Shown in pieces: positions 7,037-28,443 of a DNA stretch of 35,680 nt (the stretch's first letter is position 1; each line of letters begins with the position of its first letter). The notes under the pieces were generated by a model. That model was not told the DNA's origin and searched no databases. It saw only the letters and a list, made by a program, of their open reading frames with translations. Both the position numbers and the translations under genes were made by a program. Source of the DNA: an uncultured Anaerolineaceae bacterium (GTDB lineage: Bacteria > Chloroflexota > Anaerolineae > Promineifilales > Promineifilaceae); the NCBI GenBank assembly GCA_937967805.1, contig CALBTC010000366.1, forward strand, positions 1 through 35,680, in the 5' to 3' direction.

Positions 7037-8128
7037 ATGTCTAGATTGAACTTTTTCAGTTCCGTGCCCAAAGCACCATCTAAAACACCCCAATCTTTTA
7101 TCCTGCCACTGCAGGAACCTGTTACCGTTACGCGCTCTGAAGATGATATTTTGCTCTTGCAGTGGCAAGAAATGGCGGAGCGTACTGTGGTTTATGTAGG
7201 GGTTGATCCCCAAGCAGTGGTGGAGATGGTTCCAGTGGTGACGGTGGGGCAGGCGCGGGAGGCGATGGTGGCCGGATTGAACTCGGCCGTTCGTCACTAC
7301 TTCCGCTTAGAATTCCAGGGTGGCGCGTGGGACGGCCGTTCCCTAATAGCCGCCGAACGCGTGCTGCCCCTGCAAAAAGGCGTGAACCTGCGTGACGCCG
7401 GCGGCTACTACACCAAAGAGGGCCAGATGGTGCGCTGGGGCCGACTTTACCGCTCCGGTAGCTTATCTCGACTAACCCAGGCTGACCTGGCGTATTTGCA
7501 GCGGTTGAACATTAAGCTGGTTAGCGATTTGCGCACGGTGGATGAGCGGTTGAAGCAGCCTGATCGGTTGCCGGACGTGCCTGGGTTGGTGGAACGGCCG
7601 TTGCCCATGGAAAGTGTCGATCGCTGGGAAAGGCTGCGTGGCGCATTCACCGTCTTCTTCCGCAAGGGGCGAATTGATGATTATTTGCTTGGCGGCTACA
7701 AGCGGGTGATGATTGATGGCAACGCCCACGTGATCGGCGAGATTTTCCAACGGCTGGCCGACCCGGCGCAGACCCCGGCACTTATTCACTGCACCGCCGG
7801 CAAAGACCGCACCGGGTTGGTGGTGGCCCTGCTGCTGCTCACCCTGGGCGTACCGGAAGAAACGGTGCTGGCCGACTACACTTTGAGCAACCTGTTTTAC
7901 ACGCATTTTCGTGCCGATCTTGCCGCCGATCTGAAGCAAATTGCCCCGTGGGGCGTCTCGATGGATGATTTGCAGGATTTGTACCTGGTGAAGGCCAAGA
8001 CATTGCAAGGCGCGCTGAATCATTTGCGACAAACGTATGGCTCGCTGGACAATTACTTGCAAGATCAGGCCGGTGTGTCCGACGAAACCATAGCCCAACT
8101 GCGACAAAACTGGCTGGTAGACGGCTGA
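7037..8128 (+). CDS. Protein tyrosine/serine phosphatase (Y_phosphatase3 type) with N-terminal extension
   Basis: 363 residues from ATG 7037. The phosphatase domain (about 120-360) shows NLRDAGGYYTKEGQMVRWG, the substrate-recognition strand LYRSGSLSRL, VSDLRTVDERL and the P-loop HCTAGKDRTG with nucleophile Cys252 and Arg258. This is the tyrosine-specific/dual-specificity Cys-x5-Arg mechanism. Residues about 15-110 look like a beta-rich Ig/fibronectin-type domain (EPVTVTRSEDDILLLQWQE; HYFRLEF) of unknown role. No clear signal peptide is seen, so location is uncertain. An in-frame TTG at 6953 would add 28 residues but lies in a terminator T-run; the ATG itself has only a weak ribosome site. Confidence 0.85.
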   Translation: MSRLNFFSSVPKAPSKTPQSFILPLQEPVTVTRSEDDILLLQWQEMAERTVVYVGVDPQAVVEMVPVVTVGQAREAMVAGLNSAVRHYFRLEFQGGAWDGRSLIAAERVLPLQKGVNLRDAGGYYTKEGQMVRWGRLYRSGSLSRLTQADLAYLQRLNIKLVSDLRTVDERLKQPDRLPDVPGLVERPLPMESVDRWERLRGAFTVFFRKGRIDDYLLGGYKRVMIDGNAHVIGEIFQRLADPAQTPALIHCTAGKDRTGLVVALLLLTLGVPEETVLADYTLSNLFYTHFRADLAADLKQIAPWGVSMDDLQDLYLVKAKTLQGALNHLRQTYGSLDNYLQDQAGVSDETIAQLRQNWLVDG

Positions 8129-8157
8129 TATGATTTTCAAAACATCGTGTGACTTGT

Positions 8158-8763
8158 ATGGAAGAAACAAACTGGAATGTACTCCAAGTTTTACCTGAAG
8201 CAATTGTTATCGTTGATGATGCGCATAATATTCAATTTATGAATTCAGCAGCGATTGCGCTTTTCGGCGTTTCTGATGTCGCGGAATTTATTAGCAAACC
8301 ACTCTCAAATTTACCTGGTGCTGCGGGTCTAATGACTTATGAAAAACGAGTTGAGTTGGTTAATGAGGTAAATAAGTCAGCACTTAACAAAGTTCCTGAT
8401 CCTGAGCCAGACGATGAGCAAAGGTGGATTGGTGGGCCAAAAGGTAAGCAATTCTATTTCTTTGCCATACCATTTCATTATGCTGACCATTCAAAAACCG
8501 GTTTTGTCATCCGGATCAATGATATGACTAATGAGCGGAAAGCCATCAGTTACCTAGCGGGTTTGCCATCAGATATGTTTGCACCTTTGGAAGGCATTCG
8601 AGGTTTTGCGGAACTTCTCTTGTTGGAAGAATCCTTAACGAAGGAACAACGTGAATTCGTAATGCATATAAGCATGACAGCCATAAGCTTTTTGAATTGC
8701 GGAATGACATTCTTGATTTCAATGAGCAAGTCAATGCTGAAGACGAAAATTCGATCTAGTTGA
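8158..8763 (+). pseudogene. PAS / HisKA-like sensor fragment, frameshifted near its end
   Basis: A PAS domain (about 1-125 from ATG 8158: VLPEAIVIVDDAHNIQFMN, then FYFFAIPFHYADH and VIRINDMTNERKA) is followed by a HisKA-like helical hairpin (APLEGIRGFAELLLLEESLT, then EFVMHISMTAISFLN). The phospho-acceptor His of the usual S-H-E-L-R-x-P-L is absent (PSDMFAPL here), and no HATPase domain follows. At about nt 8697 the frame changes: the other frame from 8697 reads LRNDILDFNEQ and stops at TAG 8757, which is the expected end of the HisKA second helix. A single missing T would explain this, so the annotated C-terminus (NCGMTFLIS...) is probably an artefact or mutation. Codon use is more A+T-rich than in the neighbours and the gene lacks ACGGCCGT, suggesting recent acquisition. 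A GTG at 8149 is an alternative start. Confidence 0.65.
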
Positions 8764-8783
8764 GCTGCCCATAATATTCCATT

Positions 8784-10193
8784 ATGTTCCACGTTACTCT
8801 CATTTCTACCTATGATTTAGGCCACCAGCCGTTTGGGTTGGCGTCGCCGGCTGCATGGTTGGCAGAGGCGGGGGCGGAGGTGACGTGTGTGGATGTGTCG
8901 TTACGGCCGTTCTCCCCCCAAACCGTGCAAAACGCCAACCTCGTTGCCTTTTATCTGCCCATGCACACCGCCACCCGGTTGGCCGTAGGGCTCATCAAGC
9001 GGGTGCAGCGGATCAATCCCGAAGCCCACATTTGCGCTTACGGTCTGTATGCGCCCGTCAACGAGGCGTATTTGCAGCAGCTCGGCGTGCAAACGATTTT
9101 GGGCGGTGAATTTGAGCAGGGATTGGTTGATCTGGTAACGGCGCTGCGCGACGGTCAATCGCTGCCCAGCCTGCCTTCGGTTTCGTTGTCACGGCAGCAG
9201 TTTAAACGGCCGTCTCGCCAAACCTTGCCACCCCTCACCGAATACGCCTACCTGGACACGCCCGCCGGACGGCGCATCGTCGGCTATACGGAAGCAACGC
9301 GCGGCTGCAAACATCTGTGCCGCCACTGCCCGATTGTGCCGGTGTATAACGGCCGTTTCCGCATCGTGCAGCCGGAAGTGGTCCTGGCCGACGTGCGCCA
9401 GCAGGTGGCCGCCGGGGCGCAGCACATCACCTTTGGCGACCCCGACTTTTTGAACGGCCCCGGCCACGCCTTGCCGCTGATACAGGCGCTGCACGACGAA
9501 TTCCCCGATCTCACTTATGACGTCACCATTAAAATTGAGCATCTGCAAAAGCAAGCCGATGCCCTGCCCCTGCTGCGCGATACCGGCTGCCTCTTTGTAG
9601 TCAGTGCGGTGGAGGCGGTGGATGATGGCATCCTGGACATTTTGGACAAAGGACACACACGCGAGGATTTTGTCCAGGTGGCCCAGCGTATGCGCCAGAT
9701 TGGTTTGCCACTGACGCCCACCTTTGTCACCTTCACGCCGTGGACCACGCTGCGCGGCTATGCCGATTTTCTGGCGTTGATGGCCGAGCTGGACCTGGTT
9801 GAAGCGATCAATCCGATTCAGTACGCTATCCGGCTGTTGATTCCTGAGGGGTCGCGGTTGTTGGAATTGGATGAGGTGCGGGGGTTGGTACGGCCGTTCG
9901 ACGAAGCCGCCCTTGTTTATCCCTGGAGCCATCCGGACCCGGCGGTGGACGCGCTGTACGAAACGGTTTTCAAGCTGGTGAAAGCTAGCCAAAGCGCCGG
10001 CGAATCGCGCCAGACGCTGTTCAGGCGCATCTGGCAGGCGGTGATGGATTTACTGCCGGAGGCGGAGCGGGCGTTTTGGGCCGAACGGCAGCCCGTCCTT
10101 AGCAAAGCCGTCCGAGCCGTGCCCACCCTCAGCGAAGATTGGTACTGATGAGCGGAGCCCTTTACGGAGCAGTTTGCTTCCGACCTGGTATAA
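8784..10193 (+). CDS. B12-type radical SAM protein, probable selenoprotein with tandem Sec (UUAEP) tail
   Basis: 454 residues to the first TGA; 469 if both TGA codons are read. Residues 1-115 resemble a cobalamin-binding-type N-terminal domain (LISTYDLGHQPFGLASPAAW). The radical SAM core follows, with CKHLCRHC placing cluster cysteines at 175, 179 and 182 (Cx3Cx2C), and then a C-terminal helical domain. The reaction is unknown. The protein resembles, from memory, the family called 'CUAEP/CCAEP-tail radical SAM (seleno)protein', which carries Cys-Cys or Cys-Sec before Ala-Glu-Pro. Here the frame reads D-W-Y, TGA (10146), TGA (10149), A-E-P-F-T-E-Q-F-A-S-D-L-V, TAA (10191). The tail motif is present exactly where expected, with both thiol positions as TGA. 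A SECIS-like hairpin lies just downstream. If Sec is not inserted the protein ends at Tyr454. Confidence 0.7.
10146..10182 (+). promoter_or_regulatory. Tandem UGA codons and SECIS-like hairpin
   Basis: In-frame TGA-TGA (10146-10151) is followed by a small stem: CGGA (10165-10168) pairs with TCCG (10179-10182), and GC (10169-10170) pairs with GC (10176-10177). There is a single bulged T (10178) and the loop is AGTTT, with an apical G-T. A short helix, a GU in the apical loop and a bulged U are bacterial SECIS traits. The loop starts about 20 nt after the second TGA. The bulge is on the 3' side, unlike the E. coli fdhF element, so this is a candidate only. Confidence 0.45.
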
Positions 10194-19119: not shown

Positions 19120-20352
19120 TTATCCGTTACCATCGGCAAGTTTTTGCGCAGCCGGGGAGTGGCGTAAGCGGAACATGGCCCATATGCCCACGACTGGCCC
19201 GATGGCCAAAAAGGCAAAGGCGTAGCGCCAGGTCACGGCCGTTTCCAGCGGCGGCACCATACGAATCGTAAACAATGTCAGCAAAAAGCCCAGGCTGGTT
19301 TGCAGCGTCAGGGCCGTGCCCACGTATTCGCGTGGGGCCAGCTCGCTGACGGCGGCGGAAAATTGGGCCGAATCGGCCACGATGGCCAGGCCCCACACCA
19401 GGCAGACTATAGCCAGCAGCAGCGGATTGCCGCCAAACAAAAAGCCCACGCCCACGGCACAGGTGCCGGAAATAAGCAGTGAAGTGATGGTGATGGTGGT
19501 ACGGCCGTAGCGATCGGCCAACTGTCCGGCCAGTAAGCTGCCCAATCCACCAATAGCAATCACGCCAAATGCCGTCAGGCTGGCCCAAACAGGTGAAACG
19601 TTGACGGCCGTATAGCTGGCCAGCAAAAAGAGCGACACCCAGGACCACATGGCGTACAGTTCCCACATATGCCCCAGGTAGCCCAGATTGGCCAGCAGCA
19701 CCTCTCGCTGGCGTAAAATGTGGCCCACCTGCCGCCAGTTAAACGGCGGTGATGGGCTGCGATACGGTCCTTCGTGCACAAACAGCGCGCCAAGCAGCCC
19801 GCCAAACAGCGCCAATCCGCCGGCCAGATAAAGCACCGGCTGCCACGCCTCCACGCCGCCAAAGACGTTGAGCAGATGCGGCACGGCGGAACCAACCGTC
19901 AATGCCCCTACCAGCAGGCCAATGCCCAGGCCGCGATCTTTTTGCGTCCAGGTGGCCATGATTTTCATGCCCACCGGATAGACGCCGGCCAGCAGCACGC
20001 CGGTGAGAAAGCGCAGCAGCAGTGCCAGGGCCAGGCCATTGGCCAGGAGGGGGATGAGCAGCGTCGCCAGCCCGGCCAGCAGAGCAGAGCCGGTAAACAG
20101 CCAGCGGGCAGGCAGCCGGTCCGCCAGGTTGAGCGTGGCGGAGCCGAGCGCGCCCACCACAAAACCAATCTGCACCGACATGGTGAGCCAGGCGCGGCCG
20201 CCTTCGCTCAAGGTCCACGCTTCAGTGAGGGCGGGCACCACGGCCGAAGCGGAAAACCAGACGGCCATTGCCAGCAGCTCGGCCAGGGAGAGCAGCAGCA
20301 GGGTGCGCCATTTTTGGCGGAAACCAGGGGTTGAGGCGGTTTGCGAGATCAT
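19120..20352 (-). CDS. MFS transporter
   Basis: 410 residues, about 12 hydrophobic segments. The first (LLLLSLAELLAMAVWFSASAV) follows a short cytoplasmic N-terminus. The loop between TM2 and TM3 carries a degenerate MFS motif (LADRLPARWLFTGSA), and the second half repeats it (GQLADRYGRTTITITSLL), matching D-R-x-G-R-R/K. TM4-5 carries RFLTGVLLAGVYPVGMKIMATW. The substrate is not predictable; family resemblance is to drug or small-anion permeases. ATG 20352 is chosen over GTG 20361 because AAAAAGG lies at proper spacing before the ATG. It is divergent from the VKOR gene. Confidence 0.88.
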   Translation of the reverse strand: MISQTASTPGFRQKWRTLLLLSLAELLAMAVWFSASAVVPALTEAWTLSEGGRAWLTMSVQIGFVVGALGSATLNLADRLPARWLFTGSALLAGLATLLIPLLANGLALALLLRFLTGVLLAGVYPVGMKIMATWTQKDRGLGIGLLVGALTVGSAVPHLLNVFGGVEAWQPVLYLAGGLALFGGLLGALFVHEGPYRSPSPPFNWRQVGHILRQREVLLANLGYLGHMWELYAMWSWVSLFLLASYTAVNVSPVWASLTAFGVIAIGGLGSLLAGQLADRYGRTTITITSLLISGTCAVGVGFLFGGNPLLLAIVCLVWGLAIVADSAQFSAAVSELAPREYVGTALTLQTSLGFLLTLFTIRMVPPLETAVTWRYAFAFLAIGPVVGIWAMFRLRHSPAAQKLADGNG

Positions 20353-20496
20353 GGGATTCACCTTTTTGCGTTATTGGCTTGTATTGTAGCTGGAAACGGC
20401 CGTTTTTGTTGGGAGCGGCACTTACAACCGTTAATGATTGGTCAATAAGCGACCGTTGTAAGGCTAAAAGCAGATGTTTTAGGCTAGAATAGCAGC

Positions 20497-26346: not shown

Positions 26347-26422
26347 ACTATCATGTGCCGGAGAGACTTTTTAACAAGGCGTAGGCACCTGGAGTTTCCG
26401 ACCGACTCACAGATGATGGTAT
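26347..26422 (+). promoter_or_regulatory. Possible structured leader of the peptide gene
   Basis: TACTATCATGTG near 26347 can pair, with small bulges, with CACAGATGATGGTA (26409-26422). Inside, GTGCC pairs with GGCAC. No known riboswitch consensus was recognised, so this is only a candidate cis-regulatory structure. Confidence 0.3.
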
Positions 26423-26454
26423 AGCTCAGTAGTTCGCAGGAGATATGACCGAAA

Positions 26455-26619
26455 ATGAAAGAGTCTATGTCGATCCAAAAGTTCAACGAGTTGTTAAAAG
26501 CCGGTAAGCCCGAAGATTCCTTGCTGGCCACCTTGCTTCAATTGACAAAAGTAACCGATCACAAAGATTTATCCGAACTTCGTAAGACAGAAGTTTGGGG
26601 CTGGTATTGGGACTGGTAG
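26455..26619 (+). CDS. Trp-rich small peptide, candidate prenylated-peptide (ComX-like) precursor
   Basis: 54 residues from ATG 26455 (50 from ATG 26467). The first 45 residues are a hydrophilic, helix-prone leader (SIQKFNELLKAGKPEDSLLA, then LTKVTDHKDLSELRK). The last eight are V-W-G-W-Y-W-D-W, with Trp at 48, 50, 52 and 54, a composition very unusual for a cytosolic protein. Leader plus short aromatic core is the shape of a RiPP precursor. The next gene is a polyprenyl-synthase-like enzyme, the arrangement of Bacillus ComX (55 residues, prenylated on a C-terminal-region Trp) and ComQ. No sequence identity to ComX is claimed. AGGAG (26438-26442) lies 12 nt before ATG 26455, a longish spacing, so the exact start is uncertain. 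Confidence 0.7.
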   Translation: MKESMSIQKFNELLKAGKPEDSLLATLLQLTKVTDHKDLSELRKTEVWGWYWDW

Positions 26620-26682
26620 TCAATTGATGAGGGGGGATTGGTTTTACCGCCGTATCCCCTTCCCTTTTTCCCTTCTCTTCCT

Positions 26683-26724
26683 GATTGTGTGCAGGGGTCG
26701 GCTGCACACAATCGAGCATTTTTC
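26683..26724 (+). terminator. Intrinsic terminator/attenuator between peptide and prenyltransferase genes
   Basis: Perfect 12-bp stem: gattgtgtgcag (26683-26694) with ctgcacacaatc (26702-26713), a 7-nt loop, then gagcATTTTT. It ends 4 nt before ATG 26728. Partial readthrough would give much more peptide than enzyme mRNA, as is common for precursor peptides. Confidence 0.75.
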
Positions 26725-26727
26725 CTC

Positions 26728-27699
26728 ATGACTGATGATACCCAAATTGGAACCTACTTTTTGCAGCAGCCGGAGGTTGCCGCCTGGCCCGAATTAGTCG
26801 AAGTGTGGCACCATTATGCGCAAAACGCGCGTTCCTGGCGGCTGCCGGAATTGGCTTGCCAGGCCGTTGGTGGGGTGGTGGATAGCGTAGTACCGGTGGT
26901 GACGGCCGTTGGCTGCTGCCATATCAGCATTGTGCTGGTGGATGATATTTTGGATGACGATCCCAAGGGATTGTACCGGCGGTTGGGAGCCGGCGTGGCG
27001 GCCAACCTCGGACTGGCCTTTCAGTCGGTTGCGTACCAAATTGTGCAGCAAGCGGCTGAGGATTTGGGGTGGGAAACGGCCGTAAAACAACACATGCTGG
27101 CCGAACTGAGCCGTCTCAACCTTAAAACCGCCCACGGCCAGCATCTGGATGTCCAGGAGATTCTTAGCGAAGAACATTATTGGGCTACGATTGAGGCGAA
27201 AAGCACACCGTATTACGGTGCCGGTTTTTACCTGGGCGCGCTGGCAAGTGGTGCCGGTGCAGAACTTGCGGCCCAACTACGCCAGTTTGGCCGCCTGATT
27301 GGCAAAATCATTCAAATCAGCGACGATCTGGCAGATGTATACCAGACGCCTGCCTCGCCCGACTGGCAGCGCGGAACGGGAAACTTAGCCATTTTGTATG
27401 CGCGTTTGGCGACCCATTCAGACAAAGTTCGGTTTGAACAACTACTGCCGCAGATTGATGATTTGGCAGCATTGGAAGAGGCGCAGCAGATATTGCTGCA
27501 ATGTGGCGCTGTGAGTTACTGCATCTACCATTTGTTACAGACGGCCAGGGAAGCCCGAGGGATTTTAAATAAGTGTGGCCTGGAAAACCGGCTGGTGCTG
27601 CAACAATTTTTAGCCGAGCGCATTGCTCACCTGTTTGAGCTAATGGAAACCAGCAACATGCCTTTACCGGCAGAACTGGCCGCCGAACTGCTGGATTAA
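26728..27699 (+). CDS. Polyprenyl-synthase-family prenyltransferase (ComQ-like candidate)
   Basis: 323 residues, all-helical trans-isoprenyl diphosphate synthase fold. The first Asp-rich motif is DDILDDD (72-78), the second ISDDLADV (Asp199, 200, 203); GQHLDV (137-142) and EAKST (156-160) are further conserved elements, so Mg-diphosphate chemistry is probably intact. The N-terminal IPP-binding G-G-K-R-x-R-P is not visible; SWRLPELACQAVGG stands there instead. That fits an enzyme that uses a different acceptor, for instance a peptide Trp, though an ordinary prenyl diphosphate synthase is possible. The in-frame start at 26638 is rejected because a terminator hairpin lies between it and ATG 26728. 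It has no evident ribosome site. Confidence 0.8.
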   Translation: MTDDTQIGTYFLQQPEVAAWPELVEVWHHYAQNARSWRLPELACQAVGGVVDSVVPVVTAVGCCHISIVLVDDILDDDPKGLYRRLGAGVAANLGLAFQSVAYQIVQQAAEDLGWETAVKQHMLAELSRLNLKTAHGQHLDVQEILSEEHYWATIEAKSTPYYGAGFYLGALASGAGAELAAQLRQFGRLIGKIIQISDDLADVYQTPASPDWQRGTGNLAILYARLATHSDKVRFEQLLPQIDDLAALEEAQQILLQCGAVSYCIYHLLQTAREARGILNKCGLENRLVLQQFLAERIAHLFELMETSNMPLPAELAAELLD

Positions 27700-27723: not shown

Positions 27724-28443
27724 CTAAGATGATTCGGTTACGGCCGTAAATCGATACCCGGTGCCACGTTCCGCCACAATATAAGTTGGCTCGTTGGGAT
27801 TCACTTCGATTTTGCGCCGCAGCCGGTGGACGTGTACGTGGAGCCGGTCTTCCTGGGCTTCTTCCATGGGCCAGATGCGATTGAGCAAAAAATCTGTGGT
27901 CACGATGCGACCCGCATTGCGTACTAAAATGTACAGCAGCTTCGTTTCTGTGGGGGTGAGCGAAACGGAGTCTCCATCCACTAAGGCTTCCCGATTAGGA
28001 AAGTTCACCATGAGCCGGTCATCAATGCGGGTGGTGGATTCAAGCGTGTAGCTGTAGTCACCCATGCGGCGCAAAACGCGGCCTACCCGAGCTTTGAGCT
28101 CTTCCGGGTTAAACGGCTTGACGATGTAATCTTCGGCGTACTGTTCCAATCCCTCGATGATGGTTTCTTCGGTGTTAACGGCCGTTAGCATAATAATCGG
28201 CATATCGCTAAATTCCCGCACTGCGTGACAAAACTCAAAGCCGCTCATGATGGGCATATGCAGGTCCACAATAGCCAGGTGGGGCATGCCATACCGATTG
28301 ATAAGCTTGAGCGCATCTTGCCCAGAAGCGGCCGTCATCACCTCGTAGCCCGCCTGTTCCAGCGTATGCTGCACAATGCGTAAGGTGAAGGCATTATCAT
28401 CCACGGCAATGATTTTTTGCGATTCAATTGGGGAGTCTATCAT
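27724..28443 (-). CDS. OmpR/PhoB-type response regulator
   Basis: 239 residues. Receiver domain about 10-125: acidic pair Asp15/Asp16 (IIAVDDNAF), phospho-acceptor Asp60 (LAIVDLHMP), Thr87 and Lys109 (YIVKPFNPEEL). The C-terminal winged-helix DNA-binding domain (about 135-235) shows LVDGDSVSLTPTETKLLYIL, HVHVHRLRRKIE and YIVAERGTGYRF. No histidine kinase is adjacent, so it is an orphan. It is convergent with the prenyltransferase gene (24-nt gap) and thus not cotranscribed with it; a link to the peptide system cannot be claimed from position alone. Confidence 0.92.
   Translation of the reverse strand: MIDSPIESQKIIAVDDNAFTLRIVQHTLEQAGYEVMTAASGQDALKLINRYGMPHLAIVDLHMPIMSGFEFCHAVREFSDMPIIMLTAVNTEETIIEGLEQYAEDYIVKPFNPEELKARVGRVLRRMGDYSYTLESTTRIDDRLMVNFPNREALVDGDSVSLTPTETKLLYILVRNAGRIVTTDFLLNRIWPMEEAQEDRLHVHVHRLRRKIEVNPNEPTYIVAERGTGYRFTAVTESS

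What the first reader, a model, noticed from the sequence alone, without database searches (positions are those of the whole stretch)
26455..27699. Candidate new prenylated-peptide system: Trp-rich 54-residue peptide plus ComQ-like prenyltransferase
A gene too short for ordinary ORF calling encodes a hydrophilic leader ending in V-W-G-W-Y-W-D-W, followed by a polyprenyl-synthase-family enzyme with both Asp-rich motifs but without the visible IPP-binding G-G-K-R-x-R-P. Bacillus ComX/ComQ is the known precedent: a small peptide, Trp-prenylated by a synthase-like enzyme. Such a pair in a Chloroflexota-like genome would be a new signalling or RiPP system. No receptor kinase lies next to it; an orphan OmpR-type regulator is convergent.
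Basis: partly seen in the sequence, partly recalled or inferred. Interest (0 to 1): 0.93.

Follow-up and report, generated by a model that had tools for sequence, protein, structure and literature searches.

The report
Tryptophan-peptide prenylation pair in Chloroflexota
A DNA fragment whose closest relatives are uncultured Chloroflexota bacteria carries a tiny gene for a peptide ending in tryptophans beside an enzyme gene that likely attaches a greasy isoprenoid chain to that peptide; because most known relatives of the pair sit next to a sensor-kinase gene, such bacteria would talk with lipid-tagged peptides much as Bacillus does.

Summary
A 54-codon gene (26455-26619...VWGWYWDW) precedes an enzyme (26728-27699) with a high-confidence trans-prenyl-synthase model (pLDDT 94.4). 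The family keeps both Asp-rich motifs but GGKRxRP occurs in 0 of 117 members and the His before the first motif is lost. The peptide is under purifying selection (pN/pS 0.14). In 53 of 58 distinct enzyme loci a short ORF with a late Trp lies upstream; three of the other five are cut by contig ends and two hold divergent enzymes. A hairpin often follows the peptide gene (37 of 54). These are ComQXPA-like cassettes in Chloroflexota; a 2014 census found none outside Firmicutes (PMC4008528). The window's own clade (5 loci) lacks the kinase and has an OmpR-type regulator instead. Best reading: a Trp-prenylated peptide system derived from a quorum-sensing cassette, receptor lost or moved. Prenylation is inferred, not shown. 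New variant of a known kind.

The parts
26384..26454 (+). Conserved 5' leader of the peptide gene, with ribosome-binding site AGGAG at 26438-26442; possible RNA element or operator
   Evidence: Nearly invariant over window and L001-L004; the RNA fold is only weakly supported (2 of 36 pairs with a double change, covariation term +1.32, several pairs broken); core 18-mer found once in each of the 4 window-type genomes and in none of the 51 others searched in the order; no Rfam family
26455..26619 (+). Precursor peptide gene, 54 aa: leader (residues 1-46) plus Trp-rich tail
   Evidence: 28 close homologues, 53-row family alignment with invariant Phe10 and Trp50 columns, pN/pS 0.14
26593..26616 (+). 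Putative core VWGWYWDW; Trp at residues 48, 50, 52, 54 (acceptor residues inferred)
   Evidence: G49 and W52 invariant, W50 and W54 at least 90% in 29 sequences; pN/pS of the last 8 codons 0.05
26682..26714 (+). 13-bp stem-loop with T-rich tail between peptide and enzyme genes; would favour excess of peptide over enzyme message (inferred)
   Evidence: stems of at least 10 bp within 130 nt after 37 of 54 peptide genes; 5.7% of dinucleotide shuffles, 2 of 54 upstream and 5 of 52 coding controls. Only 18 of 54 have a stem of at least 7 bp plus a T-rich tail
26728..27699 (+). Trans-prenyl-synthase-like enzyme, 323 aa; predicted peptide tryptophan prenyltransferase
27724..28443 (-). Convergent OmpR-type response regulator; candidate output partner, in the place where relatives have a LuxR-type regulator
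   Evidence: Response_reg + Trans_reg_C; present in 5 of 5 window-type loci, but the neighbours there are syntenic more widely, so linkage is not independent evidence

Best explanation
Window 26455-27699 holds a conserved two-gene unit, a 54-residue peptide ending in WGWYWDW followed by an enzyme that keeps both Asp-rich motifs of prenyl synthases but not their GGKRxRP motif or the histidine before the first Asp motif, and it likely makes a tryptophan-prenylated lipopeptide, predicted to be released as a ComX-like extracellular signal. Shown: the pair, its selection, its conservation, the frequent hairpin between the genes, the enzyme's own clade, and the adjacent kinase and regulator genes in most relatives. 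Inferred steps: (1) the enzyme binds the peptide's leader (Phe10 and the LL..L pattern); (2) it ionises an allylic diphosphate (GPP, FPP or GGPP) with Mg2+ at DDILD, held by Lys158 and DDLAD; (3) with the usual isopentenyl diphosphate site impaired, the indole of one or more C-terminal tryptophans attacks the cation, giving a C3-prenylated, probably ring-closed tryptophan as in ComX and PalX; (4) a protease and exporter encoded elsewhere release the tail; (5) in relatives the PDZ-like loop and membrane bundle of the neighbouring kinase sense it and a response regulator answers. In the window's clade the kinase is not at the locus, so its receptor is unknown; the convergent OmpR-type regulator is the best local candidate for the output.
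For: Peptide upstream of 53 of 58 distinct enzyme loci found by enzyme alone; spread over Chloroflexota, Acidobacteriota, Myxococcota (titled Deltaproteobacteria) and Bacteroidota MAGs. 42 of 54 peptides carry WxxW, 5 WxWxW, 2 WxW, 5 a single late Trp; L031 has three tandem peptide genes and L029 one precursor with three WxxW repeats. pN/pS 0.14 and 0.27 in two subfamilies. FARM, SARM and the KTA-type Lys kept in 28 of 28 enzymes while the HDD His is Val in 28 of 28 and the first Arg of RRG is missing in 28 of 28; GGKRxRP in 0 of 117. Eight genomes holding the family also hold other synthase-like genes, 7 of 18 with GGKRxRP, so this enzyme is extra. Kinase sensor within 900 nt in 43 of 58 loci, most with TM1, a loop of about 100 aa and 6-9 further TM segments (22 inspected); PDZ_2 at 6.6e-6 in L020, just under Pfam's cut-off; Foldseek top hits mostly DegS/DegQ/HtrA PDZ domains, though at E 0.1 and above. 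In the order of L001's genome the strong sensor (E<1e-50) occurs in 10 of 13 enzyme carriers and 0 of 42 others. One ORF (L105, 1070 aa) fuses an enzyme-like domain to the sensor kinase. All characterised trans-IDS-like peptide enzymes are said to target Trp (PMC13290415, section 9 read).
Against: No chemistry was tested. The window's clade has no adjacent kinase, and two of its genomes (G434, G435) show no such sensor anywhere at E<=1e-20, so signalling in the window rests on relatives. Its core is nearly invariant, unlike the highly variable ComX (PMC4008528); and in the second group tested the last 8 codons are less constrained than the leader (pN/pS 0.35 against 0.26). The column of the second Arg of RRG is Lys or Arg in 27 of 28, so the acceptor site is not wholly erased. 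The Gln before the SARM, said to read the indole in PalQ, is equally present in 18 of 18 other paralogues here. The Pfam ComX model does not match. None of the immediate neighbours scanned is an exporter or protease. In the window the spacer before the enzyme is about 100 nt shorter than in L001/L002 and has no clear ribosome-binding site.
Confidence: 0.67

Rival explanations
1. The peptide is prenylated on tryptophan, but in the window's clade it no longer signals: a non-signalling lipopeptide (RiPP), for example acting on the envelope or on competitors.
For: No ComP-like kinase in 5 of 5 window-type loci (L003 holds only 1.15 kb downstream) and none genome-wide in G434 and G435 at E<=1e-20; nearly invariant core; the window-type clade lies among kinase-bearing loci in the tree with moderate support (91/94 and 87/92), fitting loss.
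Against: No immunity or further tailoring gene was seen among the neighbours scanned; a response regulator is adjacent in all five loci, although synteny is broad there.
Confidence: 0.2
2. The enzyme is a specialised isoprenoid diphosphate synthase or terpene cyclase, and the small peptide is a partner or regulator, not a substrate.
For: Trans-prenyl-synthase fold with both Asp-rich motifs; a basic residue remains at one RRG position in 27 of 28.
Against: GGKRxRP in 0 of 117 and His before the first motif lost; separate clade; the peptide's fixed point is a late Trp, as in ComX and PalX; link to ComP-like kinases.
Confidence: 0.09
3. The small ORF is a transcription-attenuation leader peptide with a run of Trp codons and a terminator hairpin controlling the downstream gene.
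For: Trp codons followed by a stem-loop before the enzyme gene.
Against: Selection acts on the whole amino-acid sequence, leader included (pN/pS 0.16 for the first 46 codons); the leader pattern is conserved across phyla; some peptides have a single Trp; the downstream gene is not for Trp synthesis; precursors with repeated cores or tandem genes occur; only 18 of 54 hairpins have a T-rich tail.
Confidence: 0.03

Closest known systems
Bacillus ComQXPA (ComX prepeptide, ComQ, ComP, ComA)
   Same: Short precursor with Trp near the C-terminus next to a trans-prenyl-synthase-like enzyme; in most relatives a kinase with TM, PDZ-like loop and many TM (HisKA_3 or HisKA plus HATPase_c), and in many a LuxR-type regulator. 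Published ComP: ten TM, first loop residues 27-111 of PDZ fold (PMC9620489, passages).
   Different: Peptide gene precedes the enzyme gene; the precursor is not matched by PF05952; enzyme keeps a full second Asp-rich motif, which ComQ lacks (PMC10853753); kinase is divergent or co-directional, or absent as in the window; not Firmicutes.
Paenibacillus PalQ/PalX (with kinase PalP)
   Same: Trans-prenyl-synthase-like enzyme, both Asp-rich motifs, acceptor Trp at the very C-terminus as in the window's ...DW, and a kinase gene in the cluster (PMC10853753, parts 1-3 of 4 read)
   Different: PalX has an NHLP (nitrile hydratase-type) leader; here a 46-residue leader without a Pfam family and one to several Trp in the tail
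ChrPC, a prenyltransferase-cyclase fusion acting on a ribosomal peptide
   Same: Trp prenylation by a trans-prenyl-synthase-like domain (known here only through the review PMC13290415; the primary paper PMC11484575 is not held; its host, a Bacteroidota, is recalled)
   Different: Two domains (P and C); here a single domain; no kinase link is described in what I read
Canonical trans-isoprenyl diphosphate synthases (GGPP, FPP, polyprenyl)
   Same: Fold, FARM, SARM, KTA Lys
   Different: GGKRxRP and the His before the first motif missing, separate clade, peptide partner

Membership tests
ComQXPA quorum-sensing system | Short precursor with a Trp near its C-terminus, adjacent to the enzyme gene | tested here: met
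   Window 54 aa; 53 of 58 loci; lengths 48-87 aa
ComQXPA quorum-sensing system | Precursor matches the ComX family (PF05952) | tested here: inconclusive
   No match, but the model also rang in none of 14 control genomes, so its sensitivity is unproven
ComQXPA quorum-sensing system | Adjacent ComP-type kinase (TM, PDZ loop, many TM, HisKA_3, HATPase_c) | tested here: not met
   Not in the window or its clade; a kinase with the shared sensor is adjacent in 43 of 58 loci, some with HisKA instead of HisKA_3
ComQXPA quorum-sensing system | Adjacent LuxR-type regulator (ComA) | tested here: not met
   Window has an OmpR-type regulator; LuxR-type within 200 nt in 17 of 58 loci
ComQXPA quorum-sensing system | Gene order comQ-comX-comP-comA on one strand | tested here: not met
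   Peptide precedes enzyme; kinase divergent (18 loci) or co-directional (25 loci, one of them upstream)
ComQ protein family | FARM present, second Asp-rich motif absent (as described in PMC10853753) | tested here: not met
   SARM complete in 28 of 28
Trans-IDS-like peptide tryptophan prenyltransferases (ComQ, PalQ, ChrPC) | Isoprenoid-synthase fold with FARM | tested here: met
Trans-IDS-like peptide tryptophan prenyltransferases (ComQ, PalQ, ChrPC) | Gln directly before the SARM | tested here: met
   28 of 28, but also 18 of 18 other paralogues, so not diagnostic
Trans-IDS-like peptide tryptophan prenyltransferases (ComQ, PalQ, ChrPC) | Transfers a prenyl group to Trp of the partner peptide | not testable with these tools
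   Needs an assay
Canonical trans-isoprenyl diphosphate synthases | Acceptor (IPP) side residues: GGKRxRP, His before FARM, RRG | tested here: not met
   GGKRxRP 0 of 117; Val for His in 28 of 28; first Arg of RRG missing in 28 of 28, second column Lys/Arg in 27 of 28
Family 2 encapsulin cargo prenyltransferase (NF041169) | NCBIfam curated cut-off 450 bits | tested here: not met
   69 bits, the best NCBIfam match
Trp attenuation leader peptide | Controls a Trp biosynthesis or transport gene; only the codon run matters | tested here: not met
   Downstream gene is a prenyl-synthase relative; leader codons under selection

The most novel reading that the evidence does not exclude
The window's clade shed its ComP-like receptor and kept a frozen WxWxW tail because the enzyme prenylates several of the alternating tryptophans, giving a multiply prenylated lipopeptide with a new role, while its Chloroflexota relatives run full ComQXPA-like quorum sensing by tryptophan-prenylated WxxW peptides, with two or more parallel precursor families.
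Probability: 0.25. Interest if true: 0.92.

Novelty: new variant of a known kind. Interest (0 to 1): 0.8.

Why it matters
Tryptophan-prenylated peptide pheromones are known from Bacillus and its kin; the published census found no comQXPA-like locus outside Firmicutes (PMC4008528, passages). Here the precursor, enzyme, kinase and regulator recur together in Chloroflexota, with precursor-enzyme pairs also in Acidobacteriota, Myxococcota and Bacteroidota MAGs. That gives mostly uncultured bacteria a candidate cell-cell signalling system, a new enzyme family that would attach prenyl chains to peptides, and a natural series (WxxW, WxWxW, single Trp, triple-core) for learning how such enzymes choose their tryptophan. 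A MAG titled Litorilinea aerophila carries peptide, enzyme and kinase (L024), which may allow a test in culture.

Tried and rejected

Dropped rows: the L056 motif hit is not a precursor (distant membrane-protein ORF), so 47 mechanical hits plus six read by eye (L006, L057, L058, L061, L063, L064) give the 53. L058's peptide ORF runs on past ..AASWDTLRF and was left out of the alignment of 53 and of the 54-peptide counts; L029 was left out of alignment A5 only. L032's enzyme is in pieces. L033 and L034 are partial; L032-L034 were left out of the tree. The order sample was 56 genomes and 55; all 13 carriers are in both.

Literature: PMC10853753 parts 1-3 of 4 read; PMC13290415 section 9 and passages; PMC4008528, PMC9620489, PMC13107220, PMC12715784 passages only; PMC11484575 not held. 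That this family is unreported rests on search listings in an open-licence library only; subscription papers are unseen. The roles of GGKRxRP, the His and RRG in IPP binding are recalled knowledge, as is that Litorilinea aerophila is cultured. The ComX-like look of the L104/L109/L110 leaders is recalled and untested.

Full report
What is there. The peptide ORF (26455-26619) and the enzyme ORF (ATG 26728 to 27699) are as described. The peptide has 28 database relatives at 65-94% identity, aligned over the full query in all but one; a profile of the wider family finds 75, none with a precomputed Pfam domain, those named being 'hypothetical protein'. The enzyme has 184 relatives at E<=0.001 among the 7999 scored candidates. 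The closest named relatives come from Chloroflexota; the window's own genome is not held.

Is the pair real. I searched by the enzyme alone and then looked upstream. After removing identical enzymes there are 58 distinct loci; 53 have a short ORF with a late Trp before the enzyme. The five without it are L010 (484 nt upstream), L030 and L055 (contig ends) and L042 and L056 (divergent enzymes, 143 and 224 bits; L056 has a different Trp-ended ORF on the other strand). 47 of 54 peptide genes have a strict Shine-Dalgarno core within 20 nt; the seven without include the three of L031. Aligned, 53 peptides share an invariant Phe column and an invariant late Trp column. pN/pS is 0.14 in the window's group and 0.27 in a second group; the tail is tighter than the leader in the first (0.05 against 0.16) but not in the second (0.35 against 0.26). 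Prevalence is patchy: 7 of 400 genomes of the phylum sample, 13 of 56 of the order, 25 of 396 of the class sample, E<=1e-40 (samples overlap).

Hairpin. Right after the peptide gene, stems of at least 10 bp occur in 37 of 54 cases against 5.7% of shuffles, 2 of 54 upstream and 5 of 52 coding controls. In the window it is 26682-26714 and is followed by a T run; only 18 of 54 have a stem of at least 7 bp with a T-rich tail, so many may be processing or stability elements and not terminators. Partial termination between precursor and enzyme genes is common in ribosomal-peptide operons (recalled), and would raise peptide over enzyme; this is inferred.

The surprise: kinases. Of 15 long neighbours scanned, ten were histidine kinases and five were not; five of five short convergent neighbours were response regulators, four with a GerE match at E<1e-4, close to Pfam's cut-off. 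With a sensor profile, 43 of 58 loci have such a kinase within 900 nt (lowest score 196 bits): 18 divergent upstream and 25 co-directional, one of these (L007) upstream; 17 have a LuxR-type regulator within 200 nt. Of the 15 without, five are the window's clade, four are cut by contig ends (L019, L022, L034, L064), and six are L029, L031, L042, L050, L052, L053; L052 has a sensor about 1.4 kb upstream. The sensors are homologous across both kinase types: typically one TM, a loop of about 100 residues, then 6-9 TM segments by hydropathy. ComP is described with ten TM and a PDZ-fold first loop of 85 residues that may bind ComX (PMC9620489, passages). PDZ support here is one Pfam hit (L020, 6.6e-6, just under cut-off) and weaker ones in four others of ten, and weak-E Foldseek hits to DegS/HtrA PDZ domains. 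In the order tested, strong sensors occur in 10 of 13 enzyme carriers and 0 of 42 non-carriers; five non-carriers have weaker sensors, of which L101, L103 and L104 sit by more distant enzyme-like genes and L105 is fused to one. L105 carries an enzyme-like domain (29-239), the sensor (298-757) and the kinase core (814-1069) in one 1070-aa frame, though its first Asp motif is degenerate.

The window's clade. Window and L001-L004 form one clade (100/100) placed among kinase-bearing loci with moderate support (91/94, 87/92), have no adjacent sensor kinase and share a convergent OmpR-type regulator. G434 and G435 (L002, L004) have no sensor at E<=1e-20 anywhere; these are MAGs and may be incomplete. 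The tail is nearly invariant over 29 sequences. The 5' leader 26384-26454 is as conserved as the coding part and unique to these loci in the order searched; it may be an RNA or operator element.

Membership and novelty. It works like ComQ/ComX and PalQ/PalX, but I do not file it as ComQXPA: gene order, kinase and LuxR-type regulator tests are not met in the window, and the enzyme has the second Asp motif that ComQ lacks. The relatives with kinase and regulator are ComQXPA-like in content. The class of trans-IDS-like peptide prenyltransferases is known (PMC13290415); this family, its leader and its Chloroflexota cassettes were not found in my searches. Verdict: new variant of a known kind.

What is not shown. 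No prenyl group, no export, no signal. The choice of acceptor Trp, the donor length and the receptor in the window's clade are open.

Noticed in passing
window 26384-26454; L001-L004: Near-invariant 5' leader of the peptide gene with a possible (weakly supported) folded RNA; its core occurs once per window-type genome and in none of the 51 others searched in the order.
   Followed up: partly
window 26715-26727: The spacer between hairpin and enzyme ATG is about 100 nt shorter than in L001/L002 and lacks their ribosome-binding region; the window's hairpin has more T in its tail than theirs.
   Followed up: partly
L029 7607-7867; L031 1605-2356: L029 (titled Deltaproteobacteria) precursor with three WxxW repeats; L031 (Cytophagales) with three tandem precursor genes.
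   Followed up: partly
L105 232-3441: Single 1070-aa frame fusing an enzyme-like domain (first Asp motif degenerate) with a multi-TM sensor and HisKA_3-type kinase core.
   Followed up: partly
L110 62-289, L104 3829-4044, L109 3855-4091: A second precursor family (MxxLHEVVYQIVSNP...W) beside more distant synthase-like genes that also adjoin the sensor kinase.
   Followed up: partly
L075 1223-1432, L078 197-409: A further Trp-ended small ORF type (..CAWAE..SAWAD) directly before another synthase-like gene.
   Followed up: partly
L056 2350-2475 (-): Small ORF ending NAVWPFGWY on the opposite strand between a divergent enzyme and its sensor kinase.
   Followed up: no
L012, L015 and others, between kinase and peptide genes: Shared box AAAGGAGGTGGTT..ATTATAGCG; its reverse complement holds TATAAT and may be the divergent kinase promoter.
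   Followed up: no
L027 3214-5067, L028 5633-7618: ABC transporter genes (membrane plus ATPase domain) divergent from the pair, possible export partner.
   Followed up: no
L032 around 7844-8873: The enzyme gene appears broken into frames.
   Followed up: no
window 8149-8763 and 8784-10148: A short PAS-domain ORF and a radical-SAM protein in tandem, 16-18 kb from the pair; an MFS transporter gene lies at 19123-20361.
   Followed up: no
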